Positions 23,575-51,269 of a stretch of DNA of 64,000 bases are shown one piece after another. The translations under genes and the position numbers were made by a program. Origin of the DNA: Pseudomonas poae (GTDB lineage Bacteria > Pseudomonadota > Gammaproteobacteria > Pseudomonadales > Pseudomonadaceae). Position 1 is the stretch's first letter. Every line of letters starts with the position of its first letter. The notes under the pieces are model-generated. The model saw only the letters and a program-made list of their open reading frames with translations, had not been told where the DNA came from and did no database searches. The DNA is taken from the NCBI GenBank assembly GCA_028869255.1, contig CP110972.1:5122001-5186000 (forward strand). The letters run 5' to 3'.

Positions 23575-23860
23575 TGTGAAGCTCCGGAGAAGTAAAAAGG
23601 AGCTGCCACTGATCGCCGCGACGCGATGGGGGTGGCAGCTGTACGCAGGTTCGCGGACCGATTCTCCAGAACACCGGCATACCCGAAGGTATCCCGCGCA
23701 CAGCCGCCATAGCGCCGCACAGTAGACGATAAAAAAGCGCCAACTGAAAGGAGACGATGACGCTTTTGCGTCTGAAGAAATCCGGGCCGCGACACCCGAC
23801 CGCTGAGTTTGCAGCGGTGTACGGAGACTAGAGATTGAGTGTCCTAGGGACAACCTCAAA
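23575..23860 (-). promoter_or_regulatory. Structured leader with terminator-like hairpins
   Basis: On the minus strand, upstream of the DUF6124-like gene, there is: a dyad TTGAG-GTTGTCC-CTA-GGACA-CTCAA (23835-23859); a hairpin CCGCTG/CAGCGG (23800-23817); GACGC-AAAA-GCGTC (23759-23772), whose bases overlap an alternative AAAAGCG/CGCTTTT stem ending in a U6 tract (23731-23767); and AGCTGCCAC/GTGGCAGCT with an inner ATCGC/GCGAT stem followed by CCTTTTTA (23593-23640), ending 19 bases before the start codon. Mutually exclusive stems and U tracts suggest attenuation or a riboswitch-like switch. A 47-codon frame (ATG at 23710) ends eight bases inside the gene with ATGATTAA and could be a leader peptide. 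No ligand or regulator is known to me. Confidence 0.5.
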
Positions 23861-24071
23861 GACTTGTCGGAAATTTCTGTTTGTACGAATCCCCTCCCAA
23901 CGGTCACCGATTTTGTCTTTTCTTAAAAAGGCGAATCCCCCTACAAGCACTTCCGAACCAACTGGCTGGTTCAGCCAAAAGCCCCCGCCCTAACCTCCCC
24001 TCTCGCGGTTTCGCGTCAGCCATCCGCGATGGGGATGCCTGTTTTTGCAGCGCATCGCGACTTGCCAATCT

Positions 24072-24087
24072 GTATCCCAAGGAATAC
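24072..24087 (+). promoter_or_regulatory. Possible operator of the toxin-antitoxin operon
   Basis: An imperfect palindrome GTATCCCAAGGAATAC (12 of 16 bases symmetric) sits just upstream of the toxin ATG, where type II antitoxins usually bind to repress their own operon. The rest of the gap from about 23861 holds AT-richer sequence with short open frames that I do not believe. Confidence 0.35.
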
Positions 24088-24095
24088 GATCCGAG

Positions 24096-24398
24096 ATGAT
24101 TCGATTCAAGAGATCCGACCAGTTTCAGGAATGGCTTGATTCGTCCCGCGGTAAACCTGCCCGTGGACGAGTGTTGACAAGATTAGATAACGCAACACGG
24201 GGCAATTTTGGAGACTGCGAAACCGTAGGAAGTGGCGTATTGGAAATGCGTATCCACTACGGTCCTGGATACCGGGTGTATTTCACGCGCATAGGTGAGG
24301 TGGTTTACCTGCTGTTGATAGGTGGTGATAAATCAACTCAAAAACGCGACATCCAGCGCGCTAAAGAAATTGCCGATGAATTAGGCAAAGAGGACTGA
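24096..24398 (+). CDS. RelE/HigB-type toxin (HI1419 family)
   Basis: A 100-residue toxin of the addiction-module killer family (TIGR02683-like). Markers are MIRFKRSDQFQEWLDSS, the basic RLDNATRGNFGDCETVGSGV and the strand LEMRIHYGPGYRVYFTRIG, then LIGGDKSTQKRDIQRA. Such toxins are usually ribosome-dependent mRNA interferases or gyrase poisons; which one cannot be told here. I chose the ATG at MIRFKR, not a longer frame. Toxin first, antitoxin second, with a three-base gap, is the HigBA-like order. Base composition is lower in GC than the neighbours, which suggests acquisition. Confidence 0.88.
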   Translation: MIRFKRSDQFQEWLDSSRGKPARGRVLTRLDNATRGNFGDCETVGSGVLEMRIHYGPGYRVYFTRIGEVVYLLLIGGDKSTQKRDIQRAKEIADELGKED

Positions 24399-24401
24399 CC
24401 C

Positions 24402-24689
24402 ATGACTCAATTTAAAGATTTCGACATAGCCGAGCACCTCAAGACCCCCGAGGACATGACCGAGTATCTTGAAGCCTCTTTCGAAGAGGATTCTGGTGAT
24501 GGACTACTGATTCGTTCAGCCCTAAACAATATCGCCCGCGCCCAAGGCATGACCCAAATCGCCCGCGACGCCGGCCTTGGACGCGAAAGTTTATACAAAG
24601 CCCTCTCCAGCACTGGCAATCCCGAGTTCGCGACTATCATGAAGGTCATGAAAGCTCTGGGCCTCAAGCTTCACGCCACTGCGATCTGA
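24402..24689 (+). CDS. Antitoxin, HTH family (HI1420 type)
   Basis: A 95-residue antitoxin with an XRE-like helix-turn-helix in its C-terminal half (MTQIARDAGLGRESLYKALS) and the ending TIMKVMKALGLKLHATAI usual in the TIGR02684-like family. The acidic N-terminal half (FDIAEHLKTPEDMTEYLEAS) probably wraps the toxin. It neutralises the toxin and represses the operon. Three bases separate it from the toxin stop. Confidence 0.88.
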   Translation: MTQFKDFDIAEHLKTPEDMTEYLEASFEEDSGDGLLIRSALNNIARAQGMTQIARDAGLGRESLYKALSSTGNPEFATIMKVMKALGLKLHATAI

Positions 24690-32951: not shown

Positions 32952-33895
32952 TCCTGCGCTCCCTGCTGTCTTTCGCTGCGCTGCTCGGCGCTTCTCAGGC
33001 ATTTGCCGAAGCGACCCATTACCCGCTGAAAATCCAGAGCTGCAACCGTGAAGTGACCTTCGCCGAGGCACCGAAACACGCGGTGAGCCACGACATCAAC
33101 ATGACCCAGATGATGCTCGCCCTGGGCCTCAAGCCACGCATGGCCGGCTACAGCGGCGTGACCGGCTGGAAGTCGGTAACCCCCGAAATGGCCCAGATCC
33201 TCGACGGCCTGCCGGAGTTGGCGAGCAAATACCCGTCGGTGGAAACCCTGCTCAATGCCAACGTCGATTTCTTCTTCGCCGGCTGGGACTACGGCATGCG
33301 CGTCGGTGGCGACCTCACGCCCAATACCCTGCAACCTTTGGGCATCAACGTGTATGAGCTGACCGAGTCCTGTGCCTTCGTGATGAAGCGCCCGGCGGCC
33401 ACGCTGGAGGACACCTACAACGACCTGCGCAACCTGGGCAAGATCTTCGACGTGCAAGACCGCGCCAATGCCCTGATTGCGCAGATGCAGGCGCAAGTGG
33501 CCGACGTGCAAAAAGACCTGCCGGCCGACAAGCCACGCGTGTTTCTCTACGACAGCGGTGAAGACCGCGCCATGACCTCCGGCCGCCTGGGCATGCCCCA
33601 GGCGCTGATCGACGCTGCCGGTGGGCGCAATATCCTCGACGACGTGGACGCCAGCTGGACCCGCATCAACTGGGAAACCGTGGTGGAGCGCAACCCGCAA
33701 GTCATCGTGATCGTCGACTACAGCGAAATCACCGCCGAACAGAAACAACAGTTCCTGCTCAACAACCCGGCCCTGCAATCGGTGGATGCGATCAAGAACC
33801 AGCGCTTTATCGTGATCCCCTATGTGCAGGCCACGCCGGGCATCGATAACGTGCTGGCAGTTGAAACCCTGGCCAAGGGGTTCCACGGCGAATGA
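32948..33895 (+). CDS. Periplasmic substrate-binding protein, BtuF/FecB type
   Basis: A 315-residue solute-binding protein. The signal peptide is MILRSLLSFAALLGASQAFA; there is no lipobox cysteine, so it is free in the periplasm. The class III (helical-backbone) fold is indicated by KHAVSHDINMTQMMLALGLK, KYPSVETLLNANVDFFFAGW and LQSVDAIKNQRFIVIPY. A Cys in KIQSCNREVTF and a second in TESCAFVMKR may form a disulfide. The ATG overlaps the ATPase stop (ATGA), and the permease overlaps its own end, so all three are coupled. Confidence 0.9.
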   Translation: MILRSLLSFAALLGASQAFAEATHYPLKIQSCNREVTFAEAPKHAVSHDINMTQMMLALGLKPRMAGYSGVTGWKSVTPEMAQILDGLPELASKYPSVETLLNANVDFFFAGWDYGMRVGGDLTPNTLQPLGINVYELTESCAFVMKRPAATLEDTYNDLRNLGKIFDVQDRANALIAQMQAQVADVQKDLPADKPRVFLYDSGEDRAMTSGRLGMPQALIDAAGGRNILDDVDASWTRINWETVVERNPQVIVIVDYSEITAEQKQQFLLNNPALQSVDAIKNQRFIVIPYVQATPGIDNVLAVETLAKGFHGE

Positions 33896-34902
33896 TCACC
33901 TCTCGCTACGCATTGCTGCTGAGTGCCCTTGGCGCGTTGCTGCTGGTCTCTTGCGTGGTGTCGCTGGGGTTCGGCTCGGCGCGGGTGCCGGTGGACCTGG
34001 TGTGGCGGATTCTGCTGCATAAAACCTTGGGCATCGGCGAGGTGAACTGGGCTGCCGGCCAGGAACATATCGTGTGGCTGATCCGCGTTCCGCGCATGCT
34101 GCTCGGGGCGCTGGTAGGGGCCGGGCTGGCGTTGATCGGCGCGGTGCTGCAGGCGGTCACACGCAACCCGCTGGCCGACCCGCACCTGCTCGGCGTGACC
34201 TCCGGCGCCACCCTGGGCGCGGTGATAGTGGTGTTGCATGTGGGGGAAGTGATCGGGCTGCTGACCCTGCCCATCGCCGCCTTTATCGGGGCGCTGGTGA
34301 GCATGCTGGTGGTGCTGGCGGTGGCCAGTCGCAATGGCCGGCTGGAGAGCGAGCGGCTGCTGTTGTGCGGTGTGGCGGTGTCGTTCGTGATGATGGCGGT
34401 GGCCAACCTGCTGCTGTTCATGGGCGACCACCGTGCAGCGTCGGCGGTGATGTTCTGGATGCTCGGCGGCCTGGGGCTGGCGCGCTGGGAGTTACTGAGC
34501 ATTCCGAGCGTCACAGTGTTGCTCGGGCTGGTGTTGCTGCTGGGCATGGCGCGCCCGCTGAACGCGCTGATGGCCGGTGAGCAGACTGCCGTGACCCTTG
34601 GCCTGAACGCACGCAACGTGCGGCTGAAGGTGTTTCTGATCGCCTCGCTGATGACCGGCGTGCTGGTCTCCATCAGCGGCTCCATCGGCTTTGTCGGGCT
34701 GATGGTGCCGCACATTGCACGGCGCCTGGTGGGCGCCGAGCACCGACGATTGCTGCCGGTGTGTGCGTTGCTGGGCAGCCTGTTCCTGGTGTGGGTCGAT
34801 GTGGCGGCCCGCACGCTGATCGCTCCGGAAGACCTGCCCATCGGCGTGGCGACAGCGGCCATCGGCGGGTTGTTTTTTATCGGGTTGATGCGCAAACGTT
34901 AA
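33892..34902 (+). CDS. ABC importer permease, FecCD/BtuC family
   Basis: A 336-residue permease with about ten membrane helices. Family motifs are IRVPRMLLGALVGAGLALIG, then AVLQAVTRNPLADPHLLGV and, near the C-terminus, GSIGFVGLMVPHIARRLVGA. Two copies form the channel together with the upstream ATPase. The ATG overlaps the binding-protein stop. The stop lies six bases from the end of the giant gene on the opposite strand; no terminator separates them. Confidence 0.93.
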   Translation: MITSRYALLLSALGALLLVSCVVSLGFGSARVPVDLVWRILLHKTLGIGEVNWAAGQEHIVWLIRVPRMLLGALVGAGLALIGAVLQAVTRNPLADPHLLGVTSGATLGAVIVVLHVGEVIGLLTLPIAAFIGALVSMLVVLAVASRNGRLESERLLLCGVAVSFVMMAVANLLLFMGDHRAASAVMFWMLGGLGLARWELLSIPSVTVLLGLVLLLGMARPLNALMAGEQTAVTLGLNARNVRLKVFLIASLMTGVLVSISGSIGFVGLMVPHIARRLVGAEHRRLLPVCALLGSLFLVWVDVAARTLIAPEDLPIGVATAAIGGLFFIGLMRKR

Positions 34903-34908
34903 GTGCGC

Positions 34909-37900
34909 TCATCGGCCTCCTTGAGCGCCTGCAACAGCCCGCGCGCCACCCGGCTCGCGCGGCTGCCAGAAATGATCGGTTTCCAGAATGCTCAGTTGGC
35001 CGGACGTCGCCAGCCGGCGGATCACCTCACTCGGCAGGACCTTCACGGCACCGGTGGTTTCGTCGATCCAGTCATCGCGTAACAACTGGCTTTCATCCAG
35101 GTGATAGCTGGGTTCATACACCATCAGTCCGCCCTGTACCGGGGTGAAGTAATACCGCGCCCCGGCCACTCGGTCCTGGCGCAACATCTCGATGAAGCCG
35201 CGGATTTCCGGCTGGGCGATAAAGTTGTGGGCCAACGCCTCTTCGTAGCGATCCGCCAGGCGCTGGCGCTGGGTGTCGAGTTTGTACAACTGCTGTACCC
35301 CCATGACCTTGTAACCGGCCGGGTAGCGGGTGGAGGTGCTGGGATAACCGAGGTTCATGACGCCTTCGAACAGGCTCTGATAGGCCGGTGTTTGCGGGCG
35401 CAGCCCTACCGCCACCGACGGCCCCGGGTCCGCCACCGGTTGCACGGCAATAAACGTGTCGCTGTCGCCATTGCCCAGGATCGCGCCCAGCCACGGGTGC
35501 GCCTTACCTGGCGCAAAACGCTGCCACACCAGCCGCGCCGCATCGTCCGGGTGGGCGCATAACGGCCCCAGGGCCAGGCGTGTATCAAACCCCGCCAGGC
35601 CCTGGGCCACGCGTACGACCCTGGGTAGCAACCCATCCCAGAACGGGCTGCTGTCGAGCACACGCAGCTCTGCAGACTCGATCAGCTTCAACAGATACCC
35701 GTCGATGCTGCCACGCTGATTGAGGCGCGCCAGGTACGCCGCCTGCCGAGTGGCGGAGGTCCAGTCGGGGTCCAACTGCGTCGCCCGAAAACGCACCAAT
35801 GACCCGTCGGGACAGGACACATACAACGGCAGGAAACGCTCGCTCGGTGCCGTCAGCACCCGCAGGAAACTCAGCGCTTCCAGCACCACGGCCGGTGCCG
35901 GCAGTTGCGCATAGCCCTCGCCTTGCGGCAGTTCCGGCGCGGCCTGTTGCGGCAAGTTCAGATAGAGGCCCTGGAGGCTGTAGCCGGTGGGCAACTGGCC
36001 GCGCAAGAAGGCGCGCTCGAGCCGAAATTGCAGGTCATCGCCCTTGATCGGCGCACACGCGACGAAGTGGCCATTATCGGAGGCTTTGAGGATCAGCCCG
36101 AAACTCAGCCGCGCCCGCTCATGGGAGTATTGATGGCCATGCCGTGCGGCGTCGTCGGCCTGCTTGAACACCGGGCTCAACGCCCGATCCGCCACGGCAT
36201 GCAGGATATCCTCCGGCGCGATATACCCCACGCCTGGCATCCAGCCCACGCGTACTCGCCTGGCAATGCCCCATAACGCACCGCCCTCAAGCACCTGCAA
36301 AGTCCCCACCCGCGCCAACTGGTTGACCCATTCGCTCGGGGTTTTACGCCCCGCACGCACTTGCTGCTCGACGGCATTGCCGTAGGGGTCATGGGCCGCC
36401 AGCTCGTTGGGCGCCAAGGCCGTTTCCAACTGGTTGAGCAACTGCATCGCTTCGTTGCGCTGCGTGCTGTTCATCAGGTTGCGCTCGGCGTCATGGGTGC
36501 TGAAGCCGATCAGTGAACCGTCCGGTGTCAGCAGGTATTCGTGGGTCCACAGGTGGCCTGACTTGAGGGCCGTCTCCAGCGTCTTGGTGGAGAACAGATT
36601 CTGGTACGTCGCATTCTCCTGGGCCTCCAGCCAGAACGGCAGCACCTGGGCAGCCCGCGACCGGTAGCGCCCGACCATCTTCCAGCCCGGAGCCAGCAGC
36701 GCCTGGCTGACGTCCAGGCCGGGCAGAATCACCTCGGGGTCGAAGTCCTCACTCAATACCGGTATCGCCAGGGTCGCGACGAATTTGCCGTTACGTTGCA
36801 ATATCAGGCCACCGTAGCGCTGGTCGCGCCGTGTGCCCAGTTGTTGGCAGGCGTAACGCACGGCATCGGCCTGGCTGCTGAACAAGGGGCTCAAGGCGCG
36901 GCGCATAAACCTGGAAAACGCACTCCAGGGTGTACGGCTGGTGTCCACTTTGCCCACCGACGCCCAGCATTCATTGGCGACCAGCACACTCAACCAGCTC
37001 AGTTTCGCCACCTCGTTGACGAACCCTACGACGGATAACTGCCCGCTGGCGATCAGGGTTTGCACATCTTCAAAGACCCCCGAAGGCTGGCGGATCGGGT
37101 TGAACAACATCGACGACAGCGGCGCTTGCACGCTCAGCAATGCCCGGTCGAGGGTCGAGATATACACCGGCAAGCCCGCCGGTGCACCCGCTTCGCGCTG
37201 ACGCTTGGCGTGGGTGAGCGCACTGGAAAGGTCGCTGGCCGAAATAAAATGCTGCGCCAACCAGCGTTCAGCGGTGGTCAAGCCCTGCGGCATCCAGCTG
37301 CGACCATAGAACAAGGCGTGCAACTGATAGCCCGGCGGGTAGAGGAACTGGCCCGCATCATCGACCGCAAAGATGCCGTTCAAGGCGAACAGCCCGGCCT
37401 TGTCCCAGGCCGGCACCCGTTCGGTGCCAACAAAAGCAGCATGCTCACGATGCTTGAGAATGACCCCGAAACAGGTCTGCGTCGGTGCACCACGGTCCAT
37501 GCCGGCATGCAAGGTCTCGGCGGCCTCAGCGGCGCTGGTGCAGACCTGCCCATAGGCAACTTGCTGCGGGCGGTCGCGCCGCAAACCCGCCAGGCGCGGG
37601 CGCCAATGTTCGGTGATCAACTCGGGGGCGCCCCACAAAGGGTTGCCCAGTATCACCCGTAAACTACCGCCCGCTGCCAATTGCCTGATCCATTGCGCTG
37701 CGGTGAGGGTGCCGTTGGCGAGGTTGCGGGCCACTGGGCTGTCTTGTTCGGAGGGCGTTACCGCCTGGCGCAAAGCTGCCAGGGCGGGCGAATCCCCCAG
37801 TTCAAAGACCAGCAACGCATCCTCGGCAACCGATAGATAGGCCACCGCAACCTGCTGGCGATTGCGGATCAACGTGTAGATATCATCAGCACTGAATATT

Positions 37901-40823
37901 TGCGCTGCCAGGTAGGCGTCGTCCCGTGTCCAGCCTGGGCGCAACAGTTGCTTGGGTGCCATCAAGGAAACGCCACGGCTGGAGCCATACACCGCCTTCC
38001 ACACGTGCCGAGACGGCAGCAGCGAGCGCCCCTTGCTGTCCTGGGGGTAGACAAACCCCAAGGCAAACCGCCCGGCGTCACTTGCGTACAACGGCTCGGT
38101 CGCCACGAACAGGCCGTCCGGGCGTTGCAGGATATAGCCGCAGTACTCACGCTCGCGCTGGCTGCCGATCTGTACGTGGGCATAGCGCGCAGCGTCTTCC
38201 TCGTGCAGAAACCCCGGGCTCAGTTGCGGTCGGACCGCCAGGGCGTACCCGTGCCAGGTGGCGCTGACCAGCCCAGGCACATCCCACAGCGTGCCCACCT
38301 GTAATACCGACAGTGCACCGGCGTCGGCGATCTTGAGGATCAGGTCGTGGGGCGCCAGTGTGCCGGCCCGCAGTTCATCCGCCAGCCCATTGTCGCCCAC
38401 ACTGCCGTCGGGCAGCACGCTGTAGAGCCCGGCTTCCTCGGCCGAGCCTGAGGCGTCATACGCGAGTTGCGCGCCGTCTGCCGTACTCACGTAGAGCGCC
38501 ACGTTGCTTTGCGGGGCGGCACGCAAGGAGGCAATCGCCTGGGCAAAGTCGACAGTGGCCATGAAGGACTCATAGAGCCAGGGCTCGCTGGCGATGCCAT
38601 CGGCAGCCGGTTCGCTGCGGCAGTACCAACCGCGCAGGGCGAAGCCTTGCGGCGGTCCGTCGTTGCCGAAGATGTGAGACAACGCGAACAGGGACTTGCT
38701 GCCCGGTATCGGCGTGGAAGGCTCGCTGACCACGTATTGCGCCAGGCTGCCGAACTGAAGGATACAGCCGACGCGCCGCCCACCCGGCGTCGCCTGCAGA
38801 CGGCCGTGGGCATATTCGGCGGCGGTGGCAAGGTCCGTGAAGACCCAGCTCAGCGGCGCATCTAAGGGGGCTGCCGGGGTGAAGGGCGTCTGCGGCGCCC
38901 AATTCGTCGGAACACGCCCCTGGACGTGGTACCAGGTGTCATCGGCCAGCAGCACCGTCAACTCACCGAGTTTCACCAGTTCTTTGATCAGGCCTTCGGG
39001 TGTACCGTCATACCCTTGCACCCGGGGCACCATCTCACCGGTACTCACTGCGTTCGACAAATACTCGCCGAACTCATGCTCAGCGCGGGAGCCGCTGAGC
39101 CCGTACTTGATCAGGGTGCCGTTAGGGCCGCTGGTGTAAAGCGTCTTGATCAGGTTCGAAAAGTGCAGCGTGAGGATAACCGAGCGCACCCCCGGCGTGC
39201 TGACCAGGAACGCCAATCGCCTGGGCGTGAATTCGGGATAGCTGGCAACCAGTTCGGCCTGATCGGGCTCAGGCCGATTGAACTGGCCAACCACGCGGTA
39301 ACCTTCCAGTTCAACACGGGTCAGGTAGTCGCCGGTGGGCGATGACGGCCCCCACGTGGCCCGCCACTCATCACCGTCCTGCAGCTTCGCGGTTACAAAC
39401 CGGCCATCGTTGCGTAACAAGATAAAGGCTTGTAGAAACTCACCGCGTGGCCGACCCGCCACCGCCATGTAATGCAGGTGGCGCGCCGCGTCATCCGCCG
39501 TGACAAAAGCCGGGCTCAGGGCCTGATGGATATGCGCGAAGGCCCGCCATTGCGGCCCCACCACGCCGGCCACGTCCCAGACCCTGCCGGTTTCCATCAC
39601 CGTCAGCGTGCCCACCGCCGCCACTTGCCGGACAAACGCCGAAGGGCTAAGCGTACCGTCCTTGAGGCGCCGGTCAATGTCCGCGCCACGGTTGGCGAAC
39701 AGTTGGGCTTGGGCGGCCGAGCCGGTGCAGCGGTACATCAACAGCGCGCCGTCGTCGGCGCGCAGGTAAAACTCAAGGTCCGGCTCGTCGGTTGCGGCCA
39801 GGGCGACCGCCGTCGCCAGGCTCGCGGCGGTAAAAAGCTCTGGGCCAACCAAGTCTCGCCGGCCACGGGTGGAATGTCCTTTCTGGCCAGCGAGGCATAG
39901 ATGCCCTGTAGATAAAAGCCACTGGACAACTTGGACCGGCCCTTGGGCAGAGACATGCCTGGCGGGGCTCTATCAAAGATGGACTTCAAGGCGGCATCCG
40001 GCAACTTCGCCACGAACTCGCCTGCATCATCCTTGAGCAGATAGCCAAAATGGCTGGCCTGAGTCGGCGCATCCAGGGGCGGCAAGGCGGAGCGGATTGC
40101 GTCCTGCCAGCGCCTGAAAACTTGAGTACTGGGCTCCGCCTGCAGGGACTGGGCAACCTCTGCAACGGCCTGGTTGATGGTCCAGGGTTCAACGATCTGC
40201 CCGGCCTTGCCGCCCAGCGCCTTGTTCGGCGTCACCACGCGCAGCACACCCACTCTTGCGGTGACATTGATCAGGAAAATCAGGTCTTCAAATTCGTCCG
40301 ATTCCCGGCTCGCCGTCAGCTTACTCAGGAAATGCTGTTCCTCCTGCGAACCGCTGCTTTCATATTTGATCAGCGAGTCATACCGGCCCGACAAATAATA
40401 AATCGGACAGAAATCGCGCTGTTCAATCACGAAGGCCAGACCTTTCATTGAAAAGAAGCTCAGTTCGAGACGCCGCTGTGCAGCGCTCCAATGGGCCACC
40501 TGGGCGGCCCGCGCCTTGGACTGCCCCGCCCGCGAGGTGAACAGCGCATAGACGCTGTACCCCTCCGGCGCCTGAAGGTCGACGTTGGCATCCTCCTTCA
40601 GGATCGAACCAAAGTGGAACCCGCCGGCGTTACCCGCCGTCGGCACTGTCGGCAGATACCTGCCATCGGCACGCTTGAGAATCACTGCGCCATACACCCG
40701 ATCGCGCTTGTTGCTGACCTGCATGTGCAGCCAAAAGGCCGCATCGTTGCCGGTGATGAACTCCGGGCCCAGGGGCGGTAAGCGCCCTGCAGCCTGGTCA
40801 TGTTGAATGTCCGTACTGTCCAT
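34909..40823 (-). pseudogene. Giant nine-module repeat protein (DUF4329-like modules), frameshifted
   Basis: About 1971 codons. One motif, roughly (Y/F)GxILxRxxGxFVATxP, recurs at about residues 38, 258, 466, 684, 893, 1116, 1336, 1573 and 1778, a period near 218. Each copy follows a (A)LSPxFxxxDDAARxxH segment and precedes a half-module with VYISTxDGALL and a WDVPGLVxxxW ending. DUF4329 resemblance is from memory and uncertain. No signal peptide, membrane helix or catalytic motif is seen. Two pieces (34909-39852 and 39738-40823) meet at AAAAA on the plus strand (39832-39836). One more A restores SFFTAASLATAV, parallel to ESFMATVDFAQAI in module 4. The start is MDSTDIQHDQ. It stands alone, convergent with the ABC importer and divergent from urtA. 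Function unknown. Confidence 0.8.
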
Positions 40824-40965
40824 GTTCCTGCCTTTGAATAAAGTGAAGACTCTGCCGTGCCCCTCCATTTCGAAGCGCGTCAGGCAGGCTTAACTTTCAA
40901 GGGTTTGGCCGCAGGCGGGCGTTAGATAGTTAAACCGGCCATGCCCCGTTCTAGCGCAGCAGCAC

Positions 40966-40998
40966 GCACCACCTTGCCGACACGCCTGCTTATGGTGC
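40966..40998 (+). promoter_or_regulatory. Possible NtrC half-sites upstream of urtA
   Basis: GCACCA and TGGTGC form an inverted pair 21 bases apart, 55-90 bases before the sigma-54 element. NtrC sites have the form GCACC-N5-GGTGC, so the sequences fit but the spacing does not. Weak candidate. Confidence 0.3.
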
Positions 40999-41051
40999 GC
41001 GACCAGAGCCCGCACAGATCAGAAAGCGTCTGGAACATGCCTCTGACCGAC

Positions 41052-41069
41052 TAGGCACACCCCTTGCAA
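41052..41069 (+). promoter_or_regulatory. Sigma-54 (RpoN) promoter of urtA
   Basis: TAGGCACACCCCTTGCAA contains the invariant GG and GC of the -24/-12 element with exactly ten bases between them, and GGCAC-N5-TTGCA is a near-consensus match. Transcription would start about 40 bases before the urtA ATG. This fits nitrogen control of urea uptake through NtrC. Confidence 0.75.
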
Positions 41070-41119
41070 TGTCTCCAGCATCAGCCCTTACAACAACATT
41101 GAGTTCTGGAGATAGCACC

Positions 41120-42385
41120 ATGAAGCGTCGCAGCTTGATCAAGGCTTTCACTCTCTCGGCATCGATTGCCGCCATGGGCCTGACCTGGACCGTGCAGGCC
41201 GCCGAGACCATCAAGGTCGGCATCCTGCACTCGCTGTCCGGCACCATGGCTATCTCCGAAACTTCGCTGAAAGACATGGCGCTGATGACCATCGACGAGA
41301 TCAACGCCAAGGGTGGTGTAAACGGCAAGATGCTCGAACCGGTGGTGGTCGACCCCGCGTCGAACTGGCCGCTGTTCGCTGAAAAGGGCCGGCAGTTGCT
41401 GACCCAGGACAAGGTCGCCGTGGTGTTCGGCTGCTGGACCTCGGTGTCGCGTAAATCGGTACTGCCGGTGTTCGAAGAACTCAACGGCCTGCTGTTCTAC
41501 CCGGTGCAATACGAAGGTGAAGAAATGTCGCCGAACGTGTTCTATACCGGTGCGGCGCCAAACCAGCAGGCGATCCCGGCGGTGGAATACCTGATGAGCG
41601 AAGAAGGCGGCAGCGCCAAACGCTTCTTCCTGCTCGGCACCGACTACGTGTACCCGCGCACCACCAACAAGATCCTGCGCTCGTTCCTGCATTCCAAAGG
41701 TGTGGCGGATAAAGATATCGAAGAGGTCTACACCCCGTTCGGCCACGCCGATTACCAGACCATCGTCGCCAACATCAAGAAGTTCTCCGCTGGCGGCAAA
41801 ACCGCTGTGATCTCCACCGTGAATGGCGACTCCAACGTGCCGTTCTACAAAGAGCTGGCCAACCAGGGCCTGAAAGCCACCGACGTGCCGGTGGTGGCAT
41901 TCTCGGTAGGTGAAGAAGAACTGCGCGGTATCGACACCAAGCCGCTGGTGGGCAACCTGGCGGCCTGGAACTACTTCCAGTCGGTGGAGAACCCGGTGAA
42001 CAAGAAGTTCGTCGCCGACTGGAAAGCCTACGCCAAGAAACACAACCTGCCGGGCGCGGACAAAGCCGTGACCAACGACCCGATGGAAGCCACCTACGTG
42101 GGCATCCATATGTGGGCGCAGGCGGCGGAAAAAGCCAAGTCCACCGACGTCGACAAAGTGCGTGAGGCGCTGGCCGGCCAGACCTTCGCCGCACCGTCGG
42201 GCTTTACCCTGACCATGGACAAGACCAACCACCACCTGCACAAGCCGGTGATGATCGGCGAGATCCAGGCGGATGGGCAGTTCTCCGTCGTATGGCAGAC
42301 CAACGAGCCGATCCGTGCACAGCCGTGGAGCCCGTACATTCCTGGCAATGACAAAAAGCCGGATTACGCGGTGAAGAGCAACTAA
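41120..42385 (+). CDS. urtA: Urea ABC transporter, substrate-binding protein
   Basis: A 421-residue periplasmic binding protein. The N-terminus MKRRSLIKAFTLSASIAAMG carries an RRSLIK motif, so Tat export is possible. After AETIKVGILHSLSGTMAISE come the urea-transporter markers FGCWTSVSRKSVLPVFEELN, FYPVQYEGEEMSPNVFYTGA and DYVYPRTTNKILR. CTGGAG ahead of the ATG sets the start. It is the first gene of urtABCDE behind a sigma-54-type promoter. A REPIN separates it from urtB, which may lower downstream expression relative to this abundant component. Confidence 0.95.
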   Translation: MKRRSLIKAFTLSASIAAMGLTWTVQAAETIKVGILHSLSGTMAISETSLKDMALMTIDEINAKGGVNGKMLEPVVVDPASNWPLFAEKGRQLLTQDKVAVVFGCWTSVSRKSVLPVFEELNGLLFYPVQYEGEEMSPNVFYTGAAPNQQAIPAVEYLMSEEGGSAKRFFLLGTDYVYPRTTNKILRSFLHSKGVADKDIEEVYTPFGHADYQTIVANIKKFSAGGKTAVISTVNGDSNVPFYKELANQGLKATDVPVVAFSVGEEELRGIDTKPLVGNLAAWNYFQSVENPVNKKFVADWKAYAKKHNLPGADKAVTNDPMEATYVGIHMWAQAAEKAKSTDVDKVREALAGQTFAAPSGFTLTMDKTNHHLHKPVMIGEIQADGQFSVVWQTNEPIRAQPWSPYIPGNDKKPDYAVKSN

Positions 42386-49568: not shown

Positions 49569-51269
49569 ATGAAAATCAGCCGCCAAGCCTACGCCGACAT
49601 GTACGGCCCCACCGTCGGTGACAAAGTCCGCCTGGCCGACACCGAGTTGTTCGTCGAAGTCGAGCGGGACTTCACCGTCTACGGCGAAGAAGTGAAATTC
49701 GGCGGCGGTAAAGTGATCCGCGACGGCCAGGGCCAGAGCCAACTGCTCGCCCATGAAGTGGTCGACACGCTGATCACCAACGCGCTGATCATCGACCACT
49801 GGGGCATCGTCAAGGCCGACGTCGGCCTCAAGAACGGCCGCATCCACGCCATCGGCAAGGCCGGCAACCCGGATATCCAGCCCGGCGTGACCATGGCCAT
49901 CGGCGCCAGCACCGAAGTGATCGCCGGTGAAGGCATGATCCTCACCGCGGGCGGCATCGACTCCCACGTGCATTTCATCTGCCCGCAGCAGATCGAAGAG
50001 GCGCTGACCAGCGGCGTCACCACCATGATCGGCGGCGGCACCGGCCCGGCCACCGGCACCAATGCCACCACCTGCACCTCGGGCCCGTGGCACCTGGCGC
50101 GCATGCTGCAGGCCAGCGATTCGTTCCCGATGAACATCGGTTTTACCGGCAAGGGCAACGCCAGTTTGCCGGAGCCGTTGATCGAACAGGTCAAGGCCGG
50201 TGCCATCGGCCTCAAGCTGCACGAAGACTGGGGCACCACACCCGCCAGCATCGACAACTGCCTGAGCGTTGCCGATGATTATGACGTGCAGGTAGCGATC
50301 CACAGTGACACCCTCAACGAGTCCGGCTTCGTCGAAACCACCCTGGCCGCGCTCAAGGGCCGCACCATCCACACCTACCACACCGAAGGGGCCGGTGGCG
50401 GCCACGCGCCGGACATCATCAAGGCCTGCGGTTTCGCCAACGTGCTGCCCAGTTCCACCAACCCGACCCGGCCGTTCACGCGCAACACCATCGACGAGCA
50501 CCTGGACATGTTGATGGTCTGCCATCACCTGGACCCGAGCATTGCCGAAGACGTGGCCTTCGCCGAAAGCCGCATCCGCCGCGAGACGATTGCCGCCGAA
50601 GACATCCTGCACGACCTCGGCGCGTTCTCGATGATCAGCTCCGACAGCCAGGCCATGGGCCGCGTCGGCGAAGTGATCACGCGCACCTGGCAGACCGCCG
50701 ACAAGATGAAAAAACAGCGCGGCGCCCTGCCCGGCGACGGCCCCGGCAACGACAATTTCCGCGCCAAACGCTACATCGCCAAGTACACCATCAACCCGGC
50801 GATCACCCACGGCATCAGCCATATCGTTGGTTCGATCGAAGTGGGCAAATGGGCCGACCTGGTGCTGTGGCGCCCGGCATTCTTTGGCATCAAGCCGACC
50901 TTGATCCTCAAGGGCGGCGCGATTGCTTCCAGCCTGATGGGTGACGCCAACGCATCGATTCCGACGCCGCAGCCGGTGCACTACCGCCCGATGTTCGCCA
51001 GTTTCGGCAGCTCGTTGCACGCCACCAGCCTGACCTTTATCAGCCAGGCGGCCATGGACGCGGGCTTGCCGGAGGCGCTGGGGTTGAAGAAGCAGATCGG
51101 CGTGGTCAAGGGCTGTCGCAACGTGCAGAAAACCGACCTGATCCACAACGATTACCTGCCGGATATCGAGGTTGATCCACAGACCTATCAGGTCAAGGCC
51201 GACGGGGTGTTGCTGTGGTGCGAACCGGCCGAGGTATTGCCGATGGCGCAGCGGTATTTCCTGTTCTGA
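49569..51269 (+). CDS. ureC: Urease alpha subunit (catalytic)
   Basis: The 566-residue nickel subunit that hydrolyses urea to ammonia and carbamate. Seen: the metal-binding [11 protein letters not shown], the carbamylated lysine in [29 protein letters not shown], and the flap [20 protein letters not shown]. All active-site segments are present. It follows ureB after a REP pair. A 13-bp stem follows the stop. Confidence 0.97.

What the first reader, a model, noticed from the sequence alone, without database searches (positions are those of the whole stretch)
34909..40823. Nine-module giant protein of unknown function
One gene of about 1971 codons repeats a ~218-residue module nine times: the core motif recurs at about residues 38, 258, 466, 684, 893, 1116, 1336, 1573 and 1778. 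Copies are highly diverged, so the array is old and each copy has been kept under selection. There is no signal peptide, membrane helix or known catalytic motif, and no partner gene. A cytosolic scaffold, a large toxin-like effector or a polymer-binding protein are all open. No PAO1 counterpart that I recall lies at this place.
Basis: partly seen in the sequence, partly recalled or inferred. Interest (0 to 1): 0.78.

Follow-up and report, generated by a model that had tools for sequence, protein, structure and literature searches.

The report
Giant chain of dead JAMM domains
A very large Pseudomonas gene encodes nine linked copies of the protein fold that cuts ubiquitin-like tags in other organisms; here every copy lacks the metal-binding cutting site, although many relatives keep it in the first copy, so the chain probably works by binding, and this strain's copy also carries a reading-frame break.

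Summary
The nine-module array is real, on the minus strand (34909-40823), but is not one open frame: two ORFs in different frames meet inside module 2 (about 39.80-39.85 kb). Three close orthologues are single ORFs. A module profile finds all nine modules. They belong to DUF4329 (PF14220); predicted structures place them in the JAB/JAMM/MPN fold (Rpn11, AMSH, EMC8, PfJAMM1). Of 85 module proteins in 74 named Pseudomonas loci, 51 carry the JAMM signature (E, HxH, S/T, D/E) in module 1. The window gene and 13 of 13 close homologues lack HxH in all nine modules, yet the window gene shows purifying selection (dN/dS 0.15-0.20). Modules resemble others at the same odd/even position, so the repeat unit looks like a two-module dyad (catalytic-derived plus inactive); proteins with just such a pair exist. 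Profile hits occur in 84 of 298 Pseudomonas genomes and, among 369 class-wide genomes, only in the window's own. No trafficking domain, immunity gene or membrane helix was found; urtA is beside the array in 60 of 74 loci. Best reading: an intracellular multivalent pseudo-JAMM scaffold derived from hydrolase-bearing arrays. Identity is well supported; function is inferred.

The parts
34909..40823 (-). whole nine-module gene, from the conserved ATG (40823) to the stop (34909); frame-disrupted in this window
39738..40823 (-). N-terminal ORF (module 1 and first half of module 2; the end of this ORF past the frame change is not module sequence)
34909..39852 (-). C-terminal ORF (second half of module 2 to module 9)
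39804..39852 (-). zone in which the module-2 match passes from one frame to the other
   Evidence: domain ends; three orthologues are single ORFs
40179..40778 (-). module 1 (odd type): position of the catalytic module of relatives; here V, TSR, S..G at the columns of E, HxH, S..D
39541..40133 (-). module 2 (even type), split by the frame change
38893..39525 (-). module 3 (odd type)
38248..38859 (-). module 4 (even type), first module of the AlphaFold model of modules 4-5
37597..38229 (-). module 5 (odd type), second module of the model; keeps E, S and D but not HxH
36925..37557 (-). module 6 (even type); pseudo-site Y.R, S, D invariant in 34 of 34 homologues
36235..36900 (-). module 7 (odd type); pseudo-site R.R
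35608..36186 (-). module 8 (even type)
34945..35574 (-). module 9 (odd type), lowest dN/dS against L032 (0.03)
41069..42385 (+). urtA-like periplasmic binding protein (urea ABC transporter, name inferred), divergent neighbour, 245 bases away
33892..34902 (+). FecCD-type permease, convergent neighbour, 6 bases away

Best explanation
The gene encodes (or, in this strain, encoded) a cytosolic protein made of nine tandem JAB/JAMM/MPN-fold domains of the DUF4329 family, arranged as repeats of an odd (catalytic-derived) plus even (inactive) dyad with one extra odd module at the end: (A-B)4-A. In many relatives the first odd module, and in some arrays a later one too, keeps a complete zinc-hydrolase signature; the inactive modules would hold and present the substrate, as inactive MPN partners do beside the active subunit in Rpn11-Rpn8-type pairs (recalled). 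In the window's lineage HxH is gone from all nine modules, so the most likely mechanism is multivalent, metal-free binding: a pseudoenzyme scaffold or decoy for the ligand that the active relatives cut. Shown: module count, family, predicted fold, loss of the motif, purifying selection, dyad signal, locus. Inferred: zinc binding in relatives, cytosolic action, ligand binding, scaffold role. My confidence is about 0.9 for the identity and about 0.4 for the scaffold mechanism.
Against: No experiment and no ligand. No Foldseek match reached E 0.001; all VIA Z are under 8, which the tool calls middling; 4 of the 50 Foldseek rows look unrelated. In one search, 49 of 50 rows fall on the first of the two modelled modules. 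Inactive modules 4, 5, 6, 7 and 9 give no sequence-profile match to Prok-JAB (probability at most 0.05%); their membership rests on the module profile and the fold. The genome scan's single PF14220 match in the window gene is below the cut-off (25.3 bits). The catalytic columns of modules 2 and 3 are not specially conserved, so not every pseudo-site is a kept pocket. Parity fails in L062 (4 of 12) and L087 (2 of 10), seven further arrays of the 20 have shuffle p of 0.08-0.21, and direct identities differ little (L031 0.231 against 0.218). The window copy is frame-disrupted, so this strain may make no full-length protein.
Confidence: 0.6

Rival explanations
1. A delivered toxin or effector: a giant relative of Tox-JAB-2 polymorphic toxins, exported to competing bacteria or to a host, where active modules cut nucleic acid or a ubiquitin-like conjugate.
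For: DUF4329 partly overlaps Tox-JAB-2, a toxin domain of Rhs and other polymorphic toxins, proposed to be a nuclease (PMC3482391, passages), and it is a candidate T6SS Rhs effector domain in Salmonella and E. coli (PMC10469887 and PMC7216683, passages). In eight loci of the P. gingeri/P. fuscovaginae kind an array of 6-7 modules continues into a tail of about 900-1340 residues; in the one scanned, L088, it holds Ig-like Big_2.
Against: Pfam gave DUF4329 alone for the window ORFs; modules start 14-118 residues from the called ORF start in 83 of 85 proteins, leaving little room for a trafficking domain. The gaps beside the window gene are 6 and 245 bases, to a convergent permease gene and a divergent urtA-like gene, so there is no room for an immunity gene directly after it. 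Conserved neighbourhood (urtA cluster in 60 of 74 loci). No exact match in the window to one hrp-box pattern (pattern recalled). The window lineage lacks HxH.
Confidence: 0.17
2. A nucleic-acid-processing array, RadC-like: active modules are nucleases, inactive ones bind RNA or DNA; the window lineage keeps only binding.
Against: P0001 is not basic (145 K+R, 164 D+E). AMSH, Rpn11 and PfJAMM1 score as well or better in the fold list.
Confidence: 0.2
3. In this strain the gene is a recent pseudogene and the finding is the remains of a working array (not exclusive of the readings above, which concern the lineage).
For: Two ORFs in different frames, while three compared orthologues are single ORFs. 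Coding neighbours compared with L031 and L032 match in one frame, so the stretch is not generally frame-broken. Two other genomes show one stop each inside a module match (G124 and G531, in the listed rows).
Against: dN/dS on both sides of the break (0.15-0.20) is like that between L031 and L032 (0.16), so the break is young if real; a sequencing or assembly error cannot be excluded from one assembly.
Confidence: 0.35

Closest known systems
Pfam PF14220 DUF4329 / Tox-JAB-2 (Zhang et al. 2012, PMC3482391, passages seen)
   Same: Modules hit PF14220; active modules of relatives carry the listed signature E, H[ST]H, S, D (HSH in 66 of 69)
   Different: A single toxin domain of polymorphic toxins with immunity proteins there; here up to 12 tandem modules, mostly inactive, with no trafficking domain found and no immunity gene beside the window gene
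MPN+/MPN- pairs of eukaryotic complexes (Rpn11-Rpn8, CSN5-CSN6, BRCC36-KIAA0157; pairing recalled)
   Same: Same predicted fold; an active copy beside an inactive copy
   Different: Here in one polypeptide, repeated, bacterial; dimer interface not tested
Prokaryotic JAB hydrolases (PF14464, PfJAMM1, CBASS Cap3)
   Same: Fold and motif register of the active modules
   Different: Longer stretch between HSH and S..D; no ubiquitin-like or E1 family among the neighbour representatives scanned
Two-module DUF4329 proteins, many from the P. syringae group (about 460-512 aa)
   Same: E and HxH in the first, not in the second module; probable minimal dyad
   Different: No urtA match within the regions L159, L160, L162 and L164; the one in L163 (440 aa) lies inside the urt region

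Membership tests
DUF4329 (PF14220) | match above the curated cut-off | tested here: met
   P0001 45.9 bits over the whole protein, cut-off 28.6; P0002 alone 21.7, below it; single genome-scan match 25.3, below it
JAB/JAMM/MPN fold | MPN fold | tested here: met
JAMM metalloprotease | E, HxH, S..D metal and catalytic residues | tested here: not met
   no HxH in any window module nor in any of nine modules of 13 of 13 close homologues; signature met in module 1 of 51 of 85 proteins in 74 loci
JAMM metalloprotease | zinc binding and isopeptidase activity | not testable with these tools
   needs protein
Polymorphic toxin (Tox-JAB-2) | N-terminal trafficking domain or repeats | tested here: not met
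   DUF4329 alone by Pfam, nothing by NCBIfam for the window ORFs; modules begin 14-118 residues from the ORF start in 83 of 85 proteins
Polymorphic toxin (Tox-JAB-2) | adjacent immunity gene | tested here: not met
   window only: neighbours are FecCD and an urtA-like gene, gaps 6 and 245 bases; not tested gene by gene in the other loci
MPN+/MPN- heterodimer | active-inactive dimer interface | tested here: inconclusive
Known anti-phage defence system | PADLOC model match | tested here: inconclusive
   none for P0001, P0002, the L105 pair and L088; weak JAB E 0.042 for P0060

The most novel reading that the evidence does not exclude
Pseudomonas evolved a one-polypeptide counterpart of the proteasome-lid MPN+/MPN- arrangement: dyads of an active and an inactive JAMM domain, multiplied up to 12 modules, that process or read ubiquitin-like or otherwise isopeptide-tagged substrates inside the bacterium; the window's lineage turned the whole array into a pseudo-isopeptidase reader.
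Probability: 0.15. Interest if true: 0.85.

Novelty: new variant of a known kind. Interest (0 to 1): 0.6.

Why it matters
My literature searches showed no paper on long tandem arrays of JAMM/MPN domains (open-licence papers only). The arrays show how an enzyme domain is multiplied and switched off while kept under selection, with versions bearing several, one or no catalytic modules in one genus, often at the same chromosomal place. That makes the role of inactive MPN partners testable in a simple bacterium, and gives a large uncharacterised protein family a fold and a mechanism to test.

Tried and rejected
Solved-structure sequence search with both pair profiles: best E 0.059 and 1.6, nothing relevant. 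PADLOC. NCBIfam: nothing for the module proteins except intimin-type and one weak OmpL47-type match in the tail of L088. PHROGs: nothing but one E 0.14. hrp box, one recalled pattern, exact: 0 matches in the window. Sigma-70 and terminator scan of 40600-41200: none found. Literature (nine searches): DUF4329 5 papers, passages of four seen; Tox-JAB-2 2 papers, passages of both seen; PF14220, JAB domain with pseudoenzyme, tandem JAMM/MPN/JAB phrases, DUF4329 domain with Pseudomonas fluorescens: 0 papers each; two broad searches listed 15 of 176 and 12 of 91 papers, of which I saw titles and abstract starts; JAB domain with Pseudomonas and polymorphic toxin 3 papers, one of them opened, in passages. 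No paper was read whole. Considered and dropped: programmed frameshifting, because the three compared orthologues are single ORFs; a mobile island, because of the conserved neighbourhood. Families absent from the fold lists are not excluded by that.

Rows left out: alignment A1 used P0001 and 16 of 57 homologues; A2 the window piece and 49 of 54 candidate pieces; A3 two two-module proteins and 52 of 84 candidate pieces; the module tree 21 of 85 proteins plus four two-module proteins, 166 modules with more than 120 aligned positions, and the parity count the 20 of these with five or more modules. The Prok-JAB set is 21 of 25 loci, those found by a pattern that itself asks for HxH and S..D, so that side is selected for the motif. 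The 85 proteins include a single-module one, two cut by contig ends (L037_21680, L041_21757) and one counted as eight modules that is probably seven (L102). Window pieces on the two sides of the frame change were compared separately for dN/dS; module 2 was not tested singly. Gene calls in loci come from my own simple ORF picker: small genes are missed and some antisense ORFs are included.

Full report
What is in the sequence. The finding's span holds, on the minus strand, two long ORFs: 40868-39738 (376 aa, P0002) and 39852-34909 (1647 aa, P0001), in different frames. The conserved start is the ATG at 40823 (6 of 6 aligned sequences). A profile started from one module position finds nine modules across the two ORFs, module 2 being shared between them. 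The match passes from one frame to the other between about 39,804 and 39,852. So the nine modules are real, but the single 1971-codon frame is not present in this window. Three close orthologues, in records named Pseudomonas syringae PA-4-7F (L031), P. viridiflava p4.G3 (L032) and Pseudomonas sp. ATCC PTA-122608 (L033), are single ORFs with nine modules. Coding genes within about 10 kb match L031 and L032 in one frame each; the two split matches in that call are long ORFs antisense to genes (my reading).

Catalytic residues. Among 85 module proteins in 74 named loci (24 with nine modules), 51 have the signature E, HxH, S/T, D/E in module 1; 69 modules in all are active, 65 at odd positions and 4 at positions 4 and 6 of two 12-module arrays. 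Of the 57 homologues, 36 have it in the first module. The window gene has none: module 1 reads V, TSR, S..G, and no module has HxH; module 5 keeps E, S and D. The 13 nearest homologues (P0003-P0015, 62-94% identity) likewise have V and [ST]SR in module 1 and no HxH in any module, 13 of 13. dN/dS between the window pieces and L031-L033 is 0.15-0.20, and 0.03-0.27 for modules 1 and 3-9 singly. Some former sites are fixed in position-specific ways (module 6 Y.R, S, D; module 7 first R; module 9 Q and E: each in 34 of 34), others are not (modules 2, 3). I read this as loss of catalysis with kept folds and some kept pockets.

Dyad structure. In a module tree of 21 proteins and 4 two-module proteins, the nearest module within the same array has the same odd/even parity in 134 of 157 modules of 20 arrays (shuffle mean 68.2; 9 of 9 for L031). 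It fails in L062 and L087, which have 12 and 10 modules, probably because the register is shifted; seven further arrays are not significant alone (p 0.08-0.21); direct identities show the same direction but weakly (L031 0.231 against 0.218). Of 84 multi-module proteins, 72 have 5, 7, 9 or 11 modules; the other 12 have 4, 6, 8, 10 or 12. Four of four two-module proteins in the tree have E and HxH in the first module only, and a single active module of 220 aa lies at L036:3292-3954. The simplest account is an ancestral active-inactive pair multiplied as a unit.

Place and spread. An urtA-like gene lies beside the array in 60 of 74 loci (median 181 bases), and the FecCD gene, found in 33 loci, lies a median 15 bases from it. 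With the A3 profile 84 of 298 Pseudomonas genomes match, and 1 of 369 class-wide genomes, the window's own. PF14220 itself occurs in 48 of 199 Pseudomonas genomes and in 8 of 249 phylum-wide ones, own included; the nine matches outside Pseudomonas lie in open frames of 180-223 aa. No trafficking domain or immunity gene was seen for the window gene, and no defence model beyond a weak JAB match of a relative.

Mechanism. I commit to a cytosolic multivalent pseudo-JAMM scaffold in the window's lineage, derived from arrays whose N-terminal odd modules are zinc hydrolases with inactive partners. Identity is well supported; the ligand, the zinc and the scaffold role are inference. The toxin reading is weakened by missing delivery and immunity parts and by the conserved locus; a nuclease or nucleic-acid-binding reading stays open. 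In this strain the frame change may abolish the full-length protein or may be a sequence error.

Noticed in passing
window 23628-23831 (-), 24045-24689 (+): Rfam C4 antisense RNA and its a1/b1 target element in a low-GC patch, next to a Gp49-like/HI1420-like toxin-antitoxin pair and a DUF6124 ORF.
   Followed up: partly
window 49718-50001 (-): Match to the 5' ureB sRNA family (97.2 bits), in the stretch that matches the urease-alpha cluster ORF of relatives.
   Followed up: no
L088, L089, L090, L091, L092, L095, L097, L099: P. gingeri/P. fuscovaginae-type arrays of 6-7 inactive modules followed by about 900-1340 residues (Big_2 in L088, the one scanned), beside several large related ORFs (no Pfam match in the one scanned) and an autotransporter-type gene cluster.
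   Followed up: partly
L037, L033, L094: Several arrays around the urt region in one locus, three in a row in L094: the place seems prone to gain of these genes.
   Followed up: partly
L062, L064, L087: 12- and 10-module arrays whose active positions or parity are shifted, as if an odd number of modules had been inserted (L064 not in the parity count).
   Followed up: partly
G124:C7:93378-94289 and G531:C1:4861437-4862708: Two other genomes with one stop codon inside a module match.
   Followed up: no
L159, L161: Two-module genes of two diverged types lie between similar-looking neighbours at a second locus without urt matches.
   Followed up: partly
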